In this document: piece by piece, positions 35,859-42,201 of the stretch
Numbering within the stretch: the first letter of the stretch is position 1
How the letters are laid out: every line of letters starts with the position of its first letter
Source: Gaiellales bacterium
GTDB taxonomy: Bacteria; Actinomycetota; Thermoleophilia; BMS3ABIN01
DNA length: 42,500 bases
Direction: 5' to 3'
Assembly (NCBI GenBank): GCA_003599855.1
Contig: QZKG01000002.1
Location: 1 to 42,500, forward strand
Position numbers and translations under genes: made by a program
The notes under the pieces: model-generated
The model's database searches: none
Told to the model about the DNA's origin: nothing
Seen by the model: only the letters and a program-made list of their open reading frames with translations

Positions 35859-35912
35859 GCGGCGCAGGAGCAGCGCCGGGTAAAAATCGTGATCGTAACG
35901 AGGGTGTGCCGG

Positions 35913-36815
35913 ATGTTGACAACCAAAGGTGTGGGCAAGCAGCTGCGGCGGTCGCGCCGCTTGTTACTGGCGGTTTTCGGCGCGGCAGTGCTGGTGCTGG
36001 CTGTCATCGGGCTGCTGCGGGTCTTCCTGGGGGTGGATATCGGCGAGCTCACCAGGGACCCGATCCACAAGACCGGCCTCCATCCCTTCGTGGGCTTCCT
36101 TTCCAACGCGGGAGTCCTGTTGTGGGCGTTCGCGGCGGCGATCTGCCTGTTCTGCGCCTTCGTACTGCGGCGCACCGACGGAGACGCTTCCGGGTTCTAC
36201 CTGGCCGCCGGCCTGATCACCGCCTGGATGATGCTCGATGACCTCTTTCTTTTTCATGACGTCATCCTGCGCGAGTATCTGGGGGTAGCCGAGCTGGTCA
36301 CCTACCCCCTTTATTTTGCCGCCGTGGCTGCATTCTTCTACGTTTTCCGGCGGCGGGTCCTTGATTCTGAGTATGTGATCCTGATCCTGACTGCCATGTT
36401 CTTCCTGGCGACGATGCTGTTGGACCTGCTGGTGGACAACCAGTTGATCCCGGGGGAATATCTTTTTGAGGATGGCTTCAAGTTCCTGGGGATCGTCGGC
36501 TGGCTGACCTACTTCGGGCGCACCGGTTTTTCAGACGTGCTGGCTGCAGCGTCGGCCGGCAGGAGGGCGCGCATGCGCGACGGGGTCTGCGCCCGCTGCG
36601 GCTCGACCGATGTCACCATCTCGAACAGCCGCGCACAGCCGGAACTTCACGCGGTCCCCCTTGCCGCGGCTTACCGTTACGAGAAGCCCGTGGTGACTCC
36701 GCTTCCCAGCGGGCAGCTTTCCGCTTCCTGCAACGAATGCGGATACAGCGAGATCTATCTTTCAGGCAGCTCCAAGCTGGTATCGGTCTCCCGTAACCTG
36801 CGCCGCGTCGACTGA
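35913..36815 (+). CDS. Multi-pass membrane protein with C-terminal zinc ribbon
   Basis: This 300-residue protein has about five to six hydrophobic segments (residues 18-210) and a C-terminal Cys4 zinc ribbon: CARCGS near 225 and CNECGY near 275, about 50 residues apart. Residues such as DDLFLFHDVILRE and LDLLVD form acidic/His stretches between helices. I choose ATG 35913 over GTG 35889 because of GAGGGTG nearby. I recognise no named family. It stands 54 bases after the antiporter. Confidence 0.6.
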   Translation: MLTTKGVGKQLRRSRRLLLAVFGAAVLVLAVIGLLRVFLGVDIGELTRDPIHKTGLHPFVGFLSNAGVLLWAFAAAICLFCAFVLRRTDGDASGFYLAAGLITAWMMLDDLFLFHDVILREYLGVAELVTYPLYFAAVAAFFYVFRRRVLDSEYVILILTAMFFLATMLLDLLVDNQLIPGEYLFEDGFKFLGIVGWLTYFGRTGFSDVLAAASAGRRARMRDGVCARCGSTDVTISNSRAQPELHAVPLAAAYRYEKPVVTPLPSGQLSASCNECGYSEIYLSGSSKLVSVSRNLRRVD

Positions 36816-36888
36816 AGGCCGCGGGCCGCTTCCACGTTTCCCTTCCCCCTCCACGGGGCACTCTAACCCATAAGACAGGGAGCAGGCG

Positions 36889-37518
36889 TTGAAGCGATCG
36901 ATACCGATAGAAGCAGCGCCGGGGAGCGGCAAGCCACGCCCGGTGGTTACCCTCCGGCCGGCCTCCACCGGGGACAAGCTGCGCGTCTACCAGTGGCTGG
37001 CCCAGTCGGATGCCACCGTGAGCATGATGGGGCCGCCGCTGTATCCGGAGCTGCCGGTGACTTCCTGGAAGGAATTCTGCGACGATTACGGCGATTTCTA
37101 CTTCGACGGGTCGAAGCCGCTCGAGGGACGCTGTTTCATAATCGAAACCGGCGGACGGGACATCGGTGTGATCTGCCACAATCGGGTGTTCCCGGAGCTC
37201 GGCTCGACGGATCTTGATATCTGGCTGCGTTCCTCCGACGACTTCGGCAGGGGTTATGGAACCGTTGCCCTGAGGACCCTGGTCGACCGGCTTTCCCGCG
37301 AGCTTTCGCTGGATCGTTTCGTCATATACACCTCGCGCCGCAACCCCCGGGCCATCGCCGCATATCTCAAGGCAGGTTTCCGCGAGATCACCCGGACCGA
37401 GGCGGCGGAGATCATCGAGTTCACCGAGGAGGACCTGGATTACCGTGACGGTGTTTTCCTCGGACTGGTGCAGGGTGGGGGCTGCGGGGCGCTGCCGGCG
37501 GAGCGTGAGCATGGGTAA
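36889..37518 (+). CDS. GNAT-family N-acetyltransferase (RimJ/RimL type)
   Basis: This 209-residue protein has the GNAT fold: VTLRPASTGD at the start, a beta-hairpin with IETGGRDIGVI, the acetyl-CoA loop in GRGYGTVALRTLVD, and the final YTSRRNPRAIAAYLKAGFRE. The TTG start follows GGGAG. The substrate, possibly a protein N-terminus or small amine, is unknown. It overlaps the next gene by eight bases. Confidence 0.85.
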   Translation: MKRSIPIEAAPGSGKPRPVVTLRPASTGDKLRVYQWLAQSDATVSMMGPPLYPELPVTSWKEFCDDYGDFYFDGSKPLEGRCFIIETGGRDIGVICHNRVFPELGSTDLDIWLRSSDDFGRGYGTVALRTLVDRLSRELSLDRFVIYTSRRNPRAIAAYLKAGFREITRTEAAEIIEFTEEDLDYRDGVFLGLVQGGGCGALPAEREHG

Positions 37519-38116
37519 AGGGACAGGCGGGCAGGATGACCCCAGGCGTTTCGGTTCCCGGTCGAGATGGCGCGAGTGGCTCAGGAGGAACCATGCCGCC
37601 TCCAGCGGCGCCTGGCTCGTGATCGCCAAGAAGCATGCTGCCGGGTTGCACTATGAAGAAGCTGTGGAGGAGGCGCTCTGCTTCGGCTGGATCGACAGCA
37701 CGGTCCGCCGGCTGGATGGGGATCATTACCGTCAATGGTACTCGCCGAGAAAGGCTGACAGCGCCTGGTCCAACAGCAACAGGAAACGCGTCGAGCGACT
37801 GACCGCCGAAGGCCGGATGGCCCGGGCCGGCCTGGAGAGTGTCAGGGTCGCCCGGGAGAACGGGTCGTGGAACGCCCTTGAAACGGTAGAGAAGCTCCAG
37901 GCTCCCGCGGACCTGGTCCGGGCGCTCGCCGCAACCCAAGTGGCCGGCAAGGCTTACGAGGCGTTGCCGCCCTCGCACAGGAAGCAGTACCTGTTCTGGA
38001 TCAACAGCGCAAAACGTCCCGGGACCAGAGAGCGGCGCATCCGTGAGACGGTCGAGCGCCTGGTTTCCTCTGCTGATCGGGGAGTAAAAAAACAGGAGAA
38101 TAAAAGCACCCCCTAG
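37511..38116 (+). CDS. YdeI/OmdA-family protein
   Basis: This 201-residue protein matches the YdeI-type 'bacteriocin-protection/OmpD-associated' family by segments WREWLRRNHA, GAWLVIAKK, YEEAVEEALCFGWIDSTVRRLD, YSPRKADSAWSNSNRKRVERL and the C-terminal KQYLFWINSAKRPGTRERRI. ATG 37511 has GGAG eight bases upstream and overlaps the GNAT stop. The family's biochemical role is poorly known. It ends 50 bases before the membrane protein of the radical SAM cluster, in the same direction. Confidence 0.85.
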   Translation: MGKGTGGQDDPRRFGSRSRWREWLRRNHAASSGAWLVIAKKHAAGLHYEEAVEEALCFGWIDSTVRRLDGDHYRQWYSPRKADSAWSNSNRKRVERLTAEGRMARAGLESVRVARENGSWNALETVEKLQAPADLVRALAATQVAGKAYEALPPSHRKQYLFWINSAKRPGTRERRIRETVERLVSSADRGVKKQENKSTP

Positions 38117-38166
38117 AAAATATCCCTGGCGGGCGCCATGTGAGATGCCTGGCGGCCCGCGACCAT

Positions 38167-39801
38167 ATGAGACGGCATGTTGCCATATCAGCCATGGTAG
38201 CGCTGGCCGCGGCGTATCTGTTCCTGTGCGCTGCGCATGTCCCTGCAGCCATGGCGGGGGCGGGCGAGATCGAGTTCGTCGAGACAGGGGTGGACCTGGC
38301 TTCCGACGGATCCGCGGTGATCGGGTATACGGTCGAGTGGCGGGTGACCTCCCCCGAGCTGCATGGCTTCTTCTTCCAGGCGAGCGAACCGGTTAATTCC
38401 TTTTCGGACCAGTCGTTTGCGGTGGATTCCGCGGGGCGATCCTACGGGCTGGACATCACCCTGGCGGGCCCGGACAGGTATGACATTGTCCTGGCGGACG
38501 GCTGGGGGGTCGCTTCCGGCAGCGTGACCTGCAGCTTCCTCTATTCGACAGACCTCGCGGCGGCCGGGTACGTCGCGCCCACGAGCGCCGACGACGGCCG
38601 TGACCTCGTGGTCTTCCACTGGTCTCCTGCCCAGTGGGACGAAGCGGGGGGCCAGGACCATTACACGCTCAGGGTGCTGACGCCCTTCGCGCTGCCCGCC
38701 GGCGCGGACCCCCGCGCATACGTTGAGGAAAATAGCCTGGTGTTGACCGAGAAGCGGGTCAACGACAAGTTCGTCATCGATTACCAGCGAGGGCCGGATG
38801 ACCGCCTGCAGGTCGTCTTCCACCGCGACGATCCCGGCAACCGCTTCCACATGGAGACGCAGTTCTACCTGCCGGCGGAATGGTTCGACCTGTCGGGGTT
38901 CAGCGCTGTCAGCCGCCCCTCGGTGGGAGACATCCAGCAGGAGCATGAATTCCTGCGCAGCGACCGCTGGCCCTGGTACCTTGCCGCCATCGCCGGGCTT
39001 TTGTCCTCGTTCCTCGCCGTGGTGATGGGCAAGCAGCGTTCCATGGCTGAGGCCCATGCCGGGCTGGATGAGGTCCGCTGGGAGAACATCGACTGGACGC
39101 CCCCCAGGCTGGAGCTGTCCAACTTCCGCGTCCCCGGCAAGGTTTGCAAGGACCTCACCCGGCTGGAGGCCGCCTTCTATCTGGAGATACCTTTCCGTGA
39201 CATAGTCAGCGCCCTGCTGCAGTCGCTCGTGAGCGACGGCTACCTGAAGGTGGTAAGCACTTCGCCCTTCATCATCAACGTGGTCCAGGTGCCGGATTAC
39301 AACAAGCTGGACGAGTACGAGCGGTACTTCGTGGAGGCGGTGGGCAACGACGGTGTTCTTGACCAGGCGGAGCTCGAGGGCATGATGGACATGGCGGTCA
39401 GGAACATACAGCAGAAGGCGTGGGATTGCGACATCGAGGCGACCCAGGCCCACTACCGTTCGCTGATCGGCGAGTTCGAGCGGGAGAAGCGCGAAAGCGC
39501 GGCCCGTGAGCGCGGCTACCGGGAGGACGAGTACGACACCTGGTACTGGTGGTACTACAACGGCTACCCCGGGCGCCATCACGCCTACGTCTATGACCGC
39601 GACCCCTGGGCCTACCGTTCACAGCTTCCGGTGGAGACCGACCATCTGACCCAGGGGCATATCGATACGGCGCTGGCCAGCGGCATCAATGCCTGCCACG
39701 ATGCCTGCCACTCCGCCTGTCATTCAGCCTGTCATTCAGCCTGCCACTCAGCCTGCCATTCAGCCTGCCATTCGGCCTGTGTCAGCGGCGGTTCCCACTA
39801 G
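38167..39801 (+). CDS. DUF2207-like membrane protein with C-terminal Cys-His tetrad tail, putative modification substrate
   Basis: This 544-residue protein has a signal peptide (basic MRRH, hydrophobic 5-28, likely cleavage after AMA). A DUF2207-like beta-rich outer domain covers about 30-270, and one membrane segment (WYLAAIAGLLSSFLAVVMG) lies near 275. The cytoplasmic half ends in a Tyr/Trp-rich stretch (TWYWWYYNGYPGRHH). The last 36 residues are seven tetrads ACH-S/D followed by AC and VSGGSH (residues 509-544), giving eight cysteines at regular four-residue spacing. Topology puts this tail in the cytoplasm, where the next gene's product would reach it. ATG 38167 suits the signal peptide; GTG 38140 is possible. 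Neither has a strong ribosome binding site. DUF2207 assignment is by eye; the tail may instead bind metal. Confidence 0.75.
   Translation: MRRHVAISAMVALAAAYLFLCAAHVPAAMAGAGEIEFVETGVDLASDGSAVIGYTVEWRVTSPELHGFFFQASEPVNSFSDQSFAVDSAGRSYGLDITLAGPDRYDIVLADGWGVASGSVTCSFLYSTDLAAAGYVAPTSADDGRDLVVFHWSPAQWDEAGGQDHYTLRVLTPFALPAGADPRAYVEENSLVLTEKRVNDKFVIDYQRGPDDRLQVVFHRDDPGNRFHMETQFYLPAEWFDLSGFSAVSRPSVGDIQQEHEFLRSDRWPWYLAAIAGLLSSFLAVVMGKQRSMAEAHAGLDEVRWENIDWTPPRLELSNFRVPGKVCKDLTRLEAAFYLEIPFRDIVSALLQSLVSDGYLKVVSTSPFIINVVQVPDYNKLDEYERYFVEAVGNDGVLDQAELEGMMDMAVRNIQQKAWDCDIEATQAHYRSLIGEFEREKRESAARERGYREDEYDTWYWWYYNGYPGRHHAYVYDRDPWAYRSQLPVETDHLTQGHIDTALASGINACHDACHSACHSACHSACHSACHSACHSACVSGGSH
39691..39780 (+). 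repeat. Tandem 12-base repeat encoding the ACH[S/D] tail
   Basis: Seven 12-base units GCC TGY CAY TCN (the first ends GAT) plus a final GCC TGT, all in frame. Codons for Cys, His and Ser vary between units (TGC/TGT, CAC/CAT, TCC/TCA/TCG), so the peptide is uniform while the DNA is not. Confidence 0.95.
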
Positions 39802-39808
39802 GAGCTCC

Positions 39809-41248
39809 ATGCCTGCGACCATGAGCAAACCAGACAGCAGAGTGATGAAAAGAGGCCGCCGGACGGAGGGCGCCGACCTAAAGTGGGTCGACGCTTTTAT
39901 CGACCGCATCAGGCCATACGTCACCGTGAGGGAGCAGGATGCAGTCCTGATCAAGATGCCCAACCAGGCGTTCCGCCTGAACAGGACGGGGGTGCAGGTT
40001 ATGAGTTTCCTGCTCGGCGGCGGCGGGGTGGATGACCTGCTGCGGCAAGCCGGCGCGGACAAGGCCGGAGAAGTCGCTCTCTTCCTCGACGCGGTGAAGC
40101 GCGGACTGGAAGGTTCCCTGCTGGAGACGGATCCATCTCCCGCCGTCGATGTCAAACCCCTGGAGCTTAATTTCTCGTCGCTGCCGGTCCTCGCGGAGAT
40201 CGCCTTGACGGACCGCTGCAACCTGCGTTGCGTCTTTTGTTACGCCGGTTGCCCTTCCATCCCGGCGGCAAGCGGCAAAGGGCGGGAATTGTCACAGACA
40301 GAAGTGCGGCGGCTGATAGACCGGGTGCGCGGTGAGGCCCAGGTGCCGTCGCTCAGCTTTACCGGCGGGGAGCCGACCCTGAGGCACGACCTGCCGGACC
40401 TCGTGGCATATGCCGCCCGCATCAAGGGGATGAGGGTGAACCTGATCACCAACGGCACACTCGTCACTCCCGGGCTGGCAGGCGCCCTCAGGAGGGCGGG
40501 CCTGGCTTCAGCACAGGTCAGTATCGAAGGCGCGACAGCCGCCACCCACGACGCCGCCACAGGGGTGGCGGGCTCGCATGAGCGCAGCATCGCAGGTCTT
40601 GAGAACCTGGCAGCCGCCGGCGTGCGCGTCCATGCCAACACCACCATCAACCGCCTCAACCTGCATGAGTGTGTCAGCATGCCCGGCCTGGCCGTGGCCC
40701 TCGGGCTCGACAGGTTCAGCATGAACCTCGTCATACCCGCCGGCGCCGCCGCAGCGAACCACAGCCAGCTCGTCCGCTACGAGGAGCTGGGGCCGGTGCT
40801 CGAGGGGGTGATGGCTGCCAGCCGTCGGCACGGGGTCGAGTTCATGTGGTATTCACCGACACCCCTGTGCCTGTTCAACCCGATCGCGAGGGGGCTGGGC
40901 AACAAGGGGTGCAGCGCCTGCGACGGCCTGCTCTCCGTGGACAGCTCCGGCGGAGTGCGGCCCTGCTCGTCCTGGGATGAGACGGTGGGGAGCCTGCTGA
41001 CAGGGGGATTCGAGGAAGTATGGGGGAGCGCCCGGGCAAGGGCGTACCGCGCCAAGTCCCTGGCTCATCCCGGCTGCCGGGAGTGCGACAGCTTCAGCGC
41101 CTGCAACGGAGCCTGCCCCCTCTACTGGGGGCACTTCGGTTTCAGCGAGCTGGAACGTCATGGCGTTGCTGCGGCACGGCGCAAGGCGGGTGGCCCCGGG
41201 CATCAGGAAGCCGTGCCAGCGGGGAGGGAGCAGGTGAGGTCGCGATGA
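39809..41248 (+). CDS. Radical SAM/SPASM peptide-modifying enzyme with N-terminal PqqD-like domain
   Basis: This 479-residue enzyme has an N-terminal region (about 27-105: YVTVREQDAVLIKMPNQAFRLNRTGVQVMSFLLGG) that looks like a PqqD/RRE peptide-recognition domain. The radical SAM core follows with C-x3-C-x2-C at Cys137, Cys141 and Cys144 (DRCNLRCVFCYAGC), plus FTGGEPTLR and the ITNGT strand. The C-terminal SPASM region is cysteine-rich: GCSACDG, VRPCSSW and GCRECDSFSACNGACPLYWG would hold auxiliary Fe-S clusters. Its AGGAG overlaps the stop of the tail-bearing gene, and ATG 39809 lies eight bases after that stop, so the pair is translationally coupled. It probably installs thioether or C-C crosslinks in a peptide; the neighbour's Cys-His tail is the natural candidate. 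Confidence 0.9.
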   Translation: MPATMSKPDSRVMKRGRRTEGADLKWVDAFIDRIRPYVTVREQDAVLIKMPNQAFRLNRTGVQVMSFLLGGGGVDDLLRQAGADKAGEVALFLDAVKRGLEGSLLETDPSPAVDVKPLELNFSSLPVLAEIALTDRCNLRCVFCYAGCPSIPAASGKGRELSQTEVRRLIDRVRGEAQVPSLSFTGGEPTLRHDLPDLVAYAARIKGMRVNLITNGTLVTPGLAGALRRAGLASAQVSIEGATAATHDAATGVAGSHERSIAGLENLAAAGVRVHANTTINRLNLHECVSMPGLAVALGLDRFSMNLVIPAGAAAANHSQLVRYEELGPVLEGVMAASRRHGVEFMWYSPTPLCLFNPIARGLGNKGCSACDGLLSVDSSGGVRPCSSWDETVGSLLTGGFEEVWGSARARAYRAKSLAHPGCRECDSFSACNGACPLYWGHFGFSELERHGVAAARRKAGGPGHQEAVPAGREQVRSR

Positions 41249-42201
41249 CGGGAGTTCGTCAGCAGGGAGTGGACCGGCACGGTCTGATAGTCTTTCTCGT
41301 CTGGCAGTCCCTGGCATATGGTGCGCGCATGACCCTCAGTATCCTGCTGGTTTTAACGGGGCTGGCGATACAGGTCTTCACCGGGTCGTTCCTGACGGGG
41401 GCGCCGCTGCTTCTGGCTGGGAACATCCTGCTACTGGTGCGCGGCTACGATAACCGTGTCGATGTGAAGGGCTTCCGGCCGGGGGTGGACTGGCAGAAGG
41501 TCGAGCGCGCAAGGCTCGACGAGATTCTCAGGCTCGACGAAGGCATCCGCCGCTGGGACCGCAGCGTCCTTGACGTGACTAATCTCCTCGGTGCGGCAGC
41601 CCTGCTCCTGACCGCCCTTGCCCTGGGCGCTGCCGCGTTGCTGCTGCCGTCTTTCGGCCGCATCATCGCCCTCGATGCCATGGTGCTGCTCTTGCCCCAC
41701 TGGTTCACGGGCATTCGCCGCATCCTGCGCCTGCCACAGGTGGTCGTTCGGGCGGAGGCCCTGGCGCAGGTCCTGGATGCCTCGGACGAGCTGGTCTCCG
41801 CAGCCGATACGATCGACATCCTGATGCTGCTCAAGGGCAGCGAGGTCCGGGTCCCGGACGATGTCAAGTTCAGGGTATCGTTCGTCGGCCAGGACCCGCG
41901 CTTCCTCGGCCTTTACGGGCAGGTAGTCATCAACACCGTGCAGGGCAAGTCCTACCCGTACTTCTACACAGTGCTGGTGGCGGAGAAGGGTTATGGTCTC
42001 AAGGAGACGGATGAGAGCTTCACGCCGCCGGGTAACATCGTCCATGAATACGGAACGGACAACGAGGTCGAGTTCATCGTCGTCAGGCAGAAGACCACCA
42101 GGAATTCCGGCTACCACACGAAAGGGGCCGACGCCATAGCCATATTCTTCAGCGGCTGCGGCCTTGCCCGCGAGGCAGCGTTCCCGCAGAAAAAGGTTTG
42201 A
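41245..42201 (+). CDS. Unknown four-helix membrane protein coupled to the radical SAM gene
   Basis: This 318-residue protein has two hydrophobic pairs (about 23-66 and 113-152), with a basic cytoplasmic loop between. A soluble C-terminal domain (about 165-318) contains FRVSFVGQDPRFLGLYGQVV and YPYFYTVLVAEKGYGLKE. ATG 41245 overlaps the radical SAM stop (ATGA) and follows GTGAGGT. I recognise no family. Its tight coupling suggests a partner of the tail-bearing protein or a transport/anchoring role in the same system. The larger open frame upstream belongs to the radical SAM gene region and is not its start. Confidence 0.75.
   Translation: MTGVRQQGVDRHGLIVFLVWQSLAYGARMTLSILLVLTGLAIQVFTGSFLTGAPLLLAGNILLLVRGYDNRVDVKGFRPGVDWQKVERARLDEILRLDEGIRRWDRSVLDVTNLLGAAALLLTALALGAAALLLPSFGRIIALDAMVLLLPHWFTGIRRILRLPQVVVRAEALAQVLDASDELVSAADTIDILMLLKGSEVRVPDDVKFRVSFVGQDPRFLGLYGQVVINTVQGKSYPYFYTVLVAEKGYGLKETDESFTPPGNIVHEYGTDNEVEFIVVRQKTTRNSGYHTKGADAIAIFFSGCGLAREAAFPQKKV

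What the first reader, a model, noticed from the sequence alone, without database searches (positions are those of the whole stretch)
38140..42201. Candidate undescribed radical SAM system acting on a membrane-anchored Cys-His tetrad tail
Seen directly: a membrane protein whose last 36 residues are seven ACH-S/D tetrads plus AC, a PqqD-like/radical SAM/SPASM enzyme whose ribosome binding site overlaps that protein's stop, and a third membrane protein overlapping the enzyme gene by four bases. From family knowledge: PqqD-like domains bind precursor peptides and SPASM radical SAM enzymes modify them, and systems with repeated tetrad targets (ACGX, His-Xaa-Ser) have been described. Inference: the enzyme crosslinks cysteines or histidines in the tail to make an unusual cytoplasmic, membrane-tethered structure. 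The target is a large membrane protein rather than a short free peptide, which is unusual.
Basis: partly seen in the sequence, partly recalled or inferred. Interest (0 to 1): 0.93.

Follow-up and report, generated by a model that had tools for sequence, protein, structure and literature searches.

The report
Membrane protein with enzyme-written cysteine tail
Bacteria of two phyla keep, letter for letter, an eight-cysteine repeat at the end of a membrane protein, and in every locus that could be read whole it sits beside a radical SAM enzyme that likely cross-links it; the papers searched here describe nothing like it, and it would be a new kind of membrane-bound chemical device.

Summary
A 553-aa membrane protein ends ACHD(ACHS)6AC-VSGGSH; a PqqD-like/radical SAM/SPASM gene and a second membrane protein follow, with overlapping signals.

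It is not chance. In the phylum of a Candidatus Stahlbacteria relative, 24 of 147 genomes hold this enzyme. The tail protein was found in 23 of these; in the 24th a contig end cuts the tail. No other of the 147 has it. In 22 of 22 complete copies from two phyla a 33-residue tail run is identical, though the proteins are only 28-57% identical to the window's. All 22 DNA versions differ, so selection on the protein keeps it. The third gene is in 26 of 26 loci.

A sister system exists: six genomes hold a related protein with the tail CACACACAGCACACAGGGR (five complete, one cut) and a related enzyme. Twenty ordinary DUF2207 loci have no such enzyme nearby.

Best reading: the enzyme modifies the tail, most likely through cysteine thioethers. 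The pairing is strong; chemistry, topology and purpose are inferred. Degenerate enzyme relatives without a visible tail exist in two genomes.

The parts
38140..39801 (+). Gene 1: DUF2207-like membrane protein carrying the tail (553 aa; a later ATG at 38167 is an alternative start)
   Evidence: homologues with the same tail
39691..39798 (+). Tail: ACHD(ACHS)6AC-VSGGSH, last 36 residues of gene 1
   Evidence: 33-residue invariant run in 22 of 22 copies
39800..39804 (+). AGGAG, likely ribosome-binding site of gene 2, overlapping the stop of gene 1
   Evidence: read
39809..41248 (+). Gene 2: PqqD-like/radical SAM/SPASM enzyme (479 aa from ATG 39809)
39884..40111 (+). PqqD/RRE-like N-terminal domain of gene 2 (residues 26-101; three strands then three helices in the model)
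   Evidence: model; SuiB match spans residues 28-452; PqqD in 9 of 13 family pieces
40217..40240 (+). CX3CX2C radical SAM motif of gene 2 (residues 137-144)
   Evidence: invariant in 50 aligned enzymes
40868..41116 (+). C-terminal region of gene 2 with seven further invariant Cys (residues 354-436), including the SPASM domain
41245..42201 (+). Gene 3: membrane protein (318 aa), N-terminal hydrophobic segments and a C-terminal alpha/beta domain (about residues 164-312)
   Evidence: (present in 26 of 26 loci)

Best explanation
This is a conserved three-gene cassette in which a PqqD-like/radical SAM/SPASM enzyme likely installs several cysteine thioether cross-links in the invariant ACHD(ACHS)6AC tail of a DUF2207-like membrane protein, predicted to leave a stiff, histidine-presenting scaffold fixed to the inner face of the membrane. 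Shown: the tail's conservation and fixed repeat number, its pairing with the enzyme, and the third gene. Inferred: (1) the PqqD-like domain holds the tail protein while the radical SAM site works along the tail; (2) each link joins a Cys sulfur to a backbone carbon, Ala being a likely acceptor because Ala-Cys pairs are what this tail and the sister tail CACACACAGCACACAGGGR share; (3) the tail stays on the protein, since no further neighbour family, such as a protease or transporter, is shared by more than 7 of 26 loci apart from a small upstream gene; (4) the third protein holds or shields the tail at the membrane; (5) the finished tail binds a metal or does redox chemistry. Steps 4 and 5 are the weakest.
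Against: No modification has been seen; thioethers are by analogy. The enzyme's best NCBIfam scores are to heme-pathway enzymes AhbD and NirJ2, far under cut-off, so sequence does not point to thioether chemistry. His and Ser are as invariant as Cys and Ala in the ACHS tail, which a Cys-Ala link alone does not explain. SuiA binds SuiB without using its RRE (PMC6231123, passages), so an RRE-like domain does not prove tail binding; I saw no conserved leader next to the tail. Two degenerate family members lacking the CX3CX2C motif occur in G313 and G314 with no tail gene in the 4.7-9 kb read. Most of the genomes are from one phylum and related to each other.
Confidence: 0.5

Rival explanations
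1. The enzyme modifies the tail, but not through Cys-to-backbone thioethers: for example Cys-His or Ser-based links, changes at His, or epimerisation.
For: His and Ser are as invariant as Cys. TvgB, found through a repeated target motif, turned out to do unexpected chemistry (PMC9062424, passages). AhbD/NirJ2 are the nearest curated families.
Against: The sister tail has no His and no Ser within its Cys block and is served by a related enzyme, so the shared chemistry should need only Cys, Ala or Gly. The best structural matches include sactisynthase SkfB, but also SuiB, which makes a C-C link.
Confidence: 0.27
2. The tail is an unmodified metal, heme or Fe-S ligand array and the enzyme makes or inserts a cofactor, or acts on another substrate.
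For: Eight Cys and seven ACH units in a row look like a metal site; C-H-S-A-C-H also fits a CX3CH spacing, a variant of c-type heme motifs (recalled, not tested). AhbD/NirJ2 are heme-pathway enzymes.
Against: The PqqD-like domain is a peptide-binding type. Heme motifs sharing every Cys would be unusual, and the predicted inner location does not suit c-type heme. The sister tail has no His, yet a related enzyme.
Confidence: 0.17
3. It is simply a member of a described repeat-target radical SAM system (Cys-Xaa-Xaa-Xaa, ACGX or His-Xaa-Ser).
For: TIGR04117 (Cys-Xaa-Xaa-Xaa repeat radical SAM target) is the one NCBIfam match to the window's tail, 10.1 bits, and is matched by 18 of 27 relatives at E<=1 (best 2.8e-5). 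ACGX and HxsC models match the enzymes as distant relatives.
Against: Scores are far under curated cut-offs: TIGR04117 10.1 of 50, TIGR04340 67.9 of 400, TIGR03977 82.3 of 267.9 for the L004 enzyme. The carrier is a 500-residue membrane protein and the third gene has no family.
Confidence: 0.04

Closest known systems
RRE-type radical SAM peptide maturases: SkfB (sactisynthase), SuiB, CteB, RumMC
   Same: Domain order RRE, radical SAM, SPASM/Twitch; best whole-model matches; a Cys-rich target encoded next door
   Different: Target is the C-terminal tail of a roughly 500-residue membrane protein with a fixed, invariant repeat, not a short leader-core peptide; no conserved protease or transporter gene seen
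Repeat-target systems Cys-Xaa-Xaa-Xaa (TIGR04117), ACGX (TIGR04340), His-Xaa-Ser (TIGR03977)
   Same: Radical SAM enzyme beside a protein with short tandem Cys or His repeats
   Different: All tested models score far under cut-off; repeat number here does not vary in 22 copies
TvgAB (repeated TVGG, poly-cyclopropylglycine; PMC9062424, passages)
   Same: Tetrad repeats modified in series by one radical SAM enzyme
   Different: TvgA is a short peptide with no Cys role; different cluster genes
QhpD acting on QhpC (PMC7876137, passages)
   Same: Radical SAM enzyme making several Cys thioethers inside a working protein
   Different: QhpC is a small subunit whose leader is cut off by a protease; no repeats, no membrane anchor
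DUF2207 membrane proteins (PF09972/PF20990)
   Same: Distant sequence match; published layout of large outer N-terminus and large inner C-terminus ending in a Gly/Ser stretch (PMC10457818, passages)
   Different: The Gly/Ser end is replaced here by a Cys-His tail tied to an enzyme; 0 of 20 ordinary DUF2207 loci have such an enzyme nearby

Membership tests
RRE-dependent radical SAM/SPASM maturases | CX3CX2C radical SAM core | tested here: met
   PF04055 94.1 bits; three core Cys invariant in 50 enzymes
RRE-dependent radical SAM/SPASM maturases | C-terminal SPASM domain | tested here: met
   PF13186 27.9 bits, cut-off 21.5; seven further invariant Cys
RRE-dependent radical SAM/SPASM maturases | N-terminal RRE (PqqD-like) domain | tested here: met
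   PF05402 in 9 of 13 family N-termini, none in the window's own piece; model strands 38-56 then helices 59-101; SuiB alignment spans 28-452
Classical RiPP (sactipeptide) pathway | Short precursor peptide with leader and core | tested here: not met
   Target is a 553-residue membrane protein; complete relatives are about 500-560 aa
Classical RiPP (sactipeptide) pathway | Export or leader-cleavage genes in the cluster | tested here: inconclusive
   No other neighbour family in more than 7 of 26 loci besides a small upstream gene, by a rough gene call; families with fewer loci were not all identified
Sactipeptides | Cys-to-alpha-carbon thioether in the product | not testable with these tools
   Needs MS/MS
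DUF2207 (PF09972) | Match to the N-terminal domain profile over its cut-off | tested here: inconclusive
   Window protein: no hit at E<=1; 15 of 27 relatives hit, best 4.4e-5; cut-off comparison not shown for relatives
Cys-Xaa-Xaa-Xaa repeat target (TIGR04117) | Score over curated cut-off (50 bits) | tested here: not met
   10.1 bits in the window's protein; best relative E 2.8e-5
ACGX system enzyme (TIGR04340) | Score over curated cut-off (400 bits) | tested here: not met
   67.9 bits
His-Xaa-Ser enzyme HxsC (TIGR03977) | Score over curated cut-off (267.9 bits) | tested here: not met
   82.3 bits for the L004 enzyme; not among the 25 families shown for the window's enzyme
Heme-pathway enzymes AhbD/NirJ2 (TIGR04545, TIGR04055) | Score over curated cut-off (500 bits each) | tested here: not met
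   149.5 and 132.7 bits
c-type heme protein | Heme bound at CXnCH sites outside the cytoplasm | not tested
   CX3CH spacing occurs in the tail; no test run

The most novel reading that the evidence does not exclude
Some DUF2207-type membrane proteins have swapped their glycine-rich inner tails for enzyme-written cysteine scaffolds. Each tail code (ACHD(ACHS)6AC, CACACACAGCACACAGGGR, perhaps more) is matched to its own clade of PqqD-fused radical SAM enzyme, and the finished, cross-linked tail stays on the membrane as a built-in metal or redox device. That would be a protein-tail maturation system in its own right, not a secreted-peptide pathway.
Probability: 0.4. Interest if true: 0.93.

Novelty: new variant of a known kind. 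Interest (0 to 1): 0.83.

Why it matters
A 33-residue stretch kept without one change across two phyla, while its carrier drifts to about 30% identity, says that the exact tail is the working part. It offers a defined, repetitive substrate for radical SAM chemistry on a permanent membrane protein. Two tail codes with two enzyme clades make substrate choice directly testable by swapping, and give a first handle on what the tails of DUF2207 proteins, whose function is unknown, are for.

Tried and rejected
Viruses and plasmids: a viral-contig scan with the single enzyme found no relative; with the alignment it returned 80 loci (of 214 relatives) at 22-37% identity over short stretches, not examined further. 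Plasmids: no match at E<=1e-40.

DNA slippage or repeat artefact: rejected, since 22 distinct nucleotide versions encode one tail with one repeat number. Dropped before counting: L168 (G416), matched only by the tail part of the profile, is a DNA tandem repeat with repetitive readings in several frames; L055 (G299:C8, enzyme hit at E 1.1e-16) has neither tail nor family enzyme; L057 (G088:C52) is a fragment without tail.

Abundance from the protein database was not used: tail relatives listed 10 and 15, all cut short of the tail or out of frame, so even the window's own tail protein is missing. Enzyme relatives: 2276 at E<=0.001 among 7995 scored candidates, 120 listed; their neighbourhoods could not be read, so spread beyond two phyla rests on names (Thermoleophilia, Thiolapillus, Bacteroidales, Gemmatimonadota, Planctomycetes, Desulfonatronum).

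Literature: DUF2207 with radical SAM, 0 papers; ACHSACHS strings, 8 papers on unrelated subjects by title and abstract; ACGX with radical SAM, 0; CACA tail strings, 330 papers of which 10 were listed, all holding only the shortest string. The single TIGR04222 match among 27 relatives (E 5.1e-7) was not traced to its member.

Full report
WHAT IS THERE. Three genes lie end to end on the + strand. Gene 1 (38140-39801) encodes 553 residues ending ACHD(ACHS)6AC-VSGGSH. Gene 2 (39809-41248) encodes a 479-residue radical SAM/SPASM protein; AGGAG at 39800-39804 overlaps gene 1's stop. Gene 3 (41245-42201) encodes a 318-residue membrane protein and overlaps gene 2 by four bases. The window is the first 42,500 bases of contig C17 in a 2.35-Mb, 77-contig draft genome in which the tail protein has no second relative at E<=1; the contig is 48,755 bases long. 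The closest named relatives are from Thermoleophilia MAGs.

RELATIVES. In the window's class the tail protein occurs in 2 of 199 genomes and the enzyme, at E<=1e-60, in 2 of 299: the same two, the window's and G088 of the same family. In a draw of 396 genomes of the phylum only the window's has the enzyme (G088 is not among its matches). One scan of named genome contigs gave one relative, a Candidatus Stahlbacteria contig (L004), with the same three genes in the same order and an almost identical tail. In the 147 genomes of that phylum the enzyme is in 24.

PAIRING. I fetched the enzyme loci of all 24 (L004 for G299) plus the two of the window's family, 26 in all, and read them. A complete tail reaching its stop lies directly upstream on the same strand in 22 of 26 (in L033, L036 and L051 a contig end removes the start of that gene). 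In two (L042, L052) the contig ends inside the tail, whose last residues are visible. In two (L044, L054) runs of N break the scaffold. Searching the 147 genomes with the tail-protein profile found it in 23, all among the 24; the 24th is G379, the contig of L052. In G387 (L044) the residues after the separate tail gene's stop repeat the start of that genome's enzyme, so the two are adjacent in truth; for G385 (L054) adjacency is open. Gene 3 follows the enzyme in 26 of 26. By a mechanical start rule the gaps are -25 to +224 bases (tail to enzyme) and -38 to +25 (enzyme to gene 3).

SELECTION ON THE TAIL. Among the 22 copies a run of 33 residues is invariant. The best other 33-residue window of the same protein has 8 invariant positions; the best of the enzyme has 17 and of gene 3 has 10. 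Overall identity of the tail proteins to the window's is 28-57%. All 22 DNA versions differ, by 10 to 31 of 99 bases (mean 20.1), and Ser is written with both TCN and AGY codons. Sequence and repeat number are therefore held at protein level. The Stahlbacteria-group copies carry one more block before the core (SDACHSACYVHT in the 17 aligned; SEACHSACYVHT in L150). Two metagenome relatives, P0002 and P0005, read another frame near their ends, yet their letters are compatible with the whole 36-residue tail in the next frame; P0134 is compatible over 14 residues; the longest run in 30 shuffles of one of these ends was 7.

A SISTER SYSTEM. The profile search also hit six genomes through the cytosolic region only. 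Their proteins of about 550 residues, related to the window's type over that region at 20-25% identity, end in CACACACAGCACACAGGGR in five of six; in the sixth (G313) a contig end cuts the tail. In five a radical SAM gene follows; in G313 it stands at the start of another contig. In all 147 genomes this tail protein is found full-length or nearly so in six (a seventh match, G299, is its ACHS protein), and an enzyme at 49% identity or more in the same six. The two enzyme clades are 29-34% identical. At E<=1e-60 the enzyme query matches 29 genomes, which are these six and 23 of the 24 ACHS genomes (the missing one, G385, has its enzyme broken by N). Against a perfect rule: G313 and G314 each hold a second, degenerate relative that has lost the CX3CX2C motif, with no Cys-tail gene in the 4.7 and 9 kb read. 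Next to this system lie a small membrane protein with paired CXXC motifs and, in L174, a Band 7/SPFH protein with zinc ribbons.

CONTROL. PF09972 (DUF2207) is in 45 of 149 genomes of the window's class, 52 matches; the window's own genome and G088 give none over the threshold. I fetched 20 of the 52; 16 were chosen because a Gly-rich tail had been seen, so the 18 of 20 with such a tail is not a rate. None of the 20 has a member of this enzyme family at E<=1e-5 within its 6.2-13.5 kb.

TAIL CARRIER AND GENE 3. A Kyte-Doolittle scan shows an N-terminal hydrophobic segment (14-32) and one at 279-297 in the window's protein, which would put the tail inside. Of seven relatives scanned, some lack the first segment and two show an extra one, so topology is a prediction. 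Published DUF2207 proteins have a large outer N-terminus and a large inner C-terminus with a Gly/Ser stretch (PMC10457818, passages). Gene 3's product (model pLDDT 77.5) has no family; its C-terminal domain weakly resembles secretion-chaperone and YbjN folds.

HOW IT PROBABLY WORKS. Shown: pairing, frozen tail, RRE-type enzyme, two tail codes with two enzyme clades. Inferred: the enzyme recognises the carrier and cross-links the tail. Ala-Cys pairs are common to both tails. RumMC2 joins Cys to Ala or Gly in engineered peptides (PMC8188230, passages), so Cys-Ala thioethers are chemically reasonable; yet His and Ser must matter in the ACHS tail, being just as invariant. QhpD is a precedent for thioethers inside a working protein (PMC7876137, passages), and TvgB for a repeat-target enzyme with unexpected chemistry (PMC9062424, passages). 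A role in metal binding, redox or stress is a guess; one DUF2207 mutant of Streptococcus mutans has stress and biofilm defects (PMC10457818, abstract passages).

LIMITS. Nearly all genomes here are drafts. The 24 Stahlbacteria-group genomes are related and not independent events; the independent contrasts are the two phyla and the two tail systems. Spread beyond two phyla rests on names in protein listings. The protein database lists no in-frame tail protein, not even the window's, for reasons I could not find.

Noticed in passing
L169-L174 (G309, G314, G315, G313, G312, G364): Sister system: DUF2207-like protein ending CACACACAGCACACAGGGR (five complete, one cut by a contig end) with a related radical SAM gene.
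   Followed up: yes
L004:1122-1532 and 15 other Stahlbacteria-group loci: A small gene (about 130 aa, MNLPYGEIK...) lies just upstream of the tail gene in 16 of 26 loci and is also seen in L150, L151 and L156; no Pfam match over cut-off. Not found beside the window's or G088's cassette.
   Followed up: partly
L265:314-1552 (G314) and L266:1629-2888 (G313): Degenerate relatives of the sister-system enzyme that keep the PqqD-like start but have lost the CX3CX2C motif; no tail gene seen nearby.
   Followed up: partly
L057:8202-8639 (G088:C52): Second, short copy of the tail protein's N-terminal region in G088, matching about 106 residues at 53% identity, with a stop codon and no tail.
   Followed up: no
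protein database: No in-frame tail protein is listed, not even the window's own, though its enzyme is (P0012); listed relatives stop before the tail or read it in another frame (P0002, P0005, P0134). Cause unknown.
   Followed up: partly
L042, L052, L044, L054, L172: Contig ends or N runs fall in or beside the repetitive tail or the enzyme start, so assembly breaks may hide this system in drafts.
   Followed up: partly
window 35889-38116: Upstream genes: a membrane protein with a sub-threshold zinc-ribbon match, a GNAT acetyltransferase and a YdeI/OmdA-type protein (PF13376); no sign that they belong to the cassette.
   Followed up: no
L168:1369-1806 (G416): DNA tandem repeat whose translation resembles the tail (ACHDAYDSACHDACDS...); it reads as repeats in several frames, taken as chance.
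   Followed up: partly
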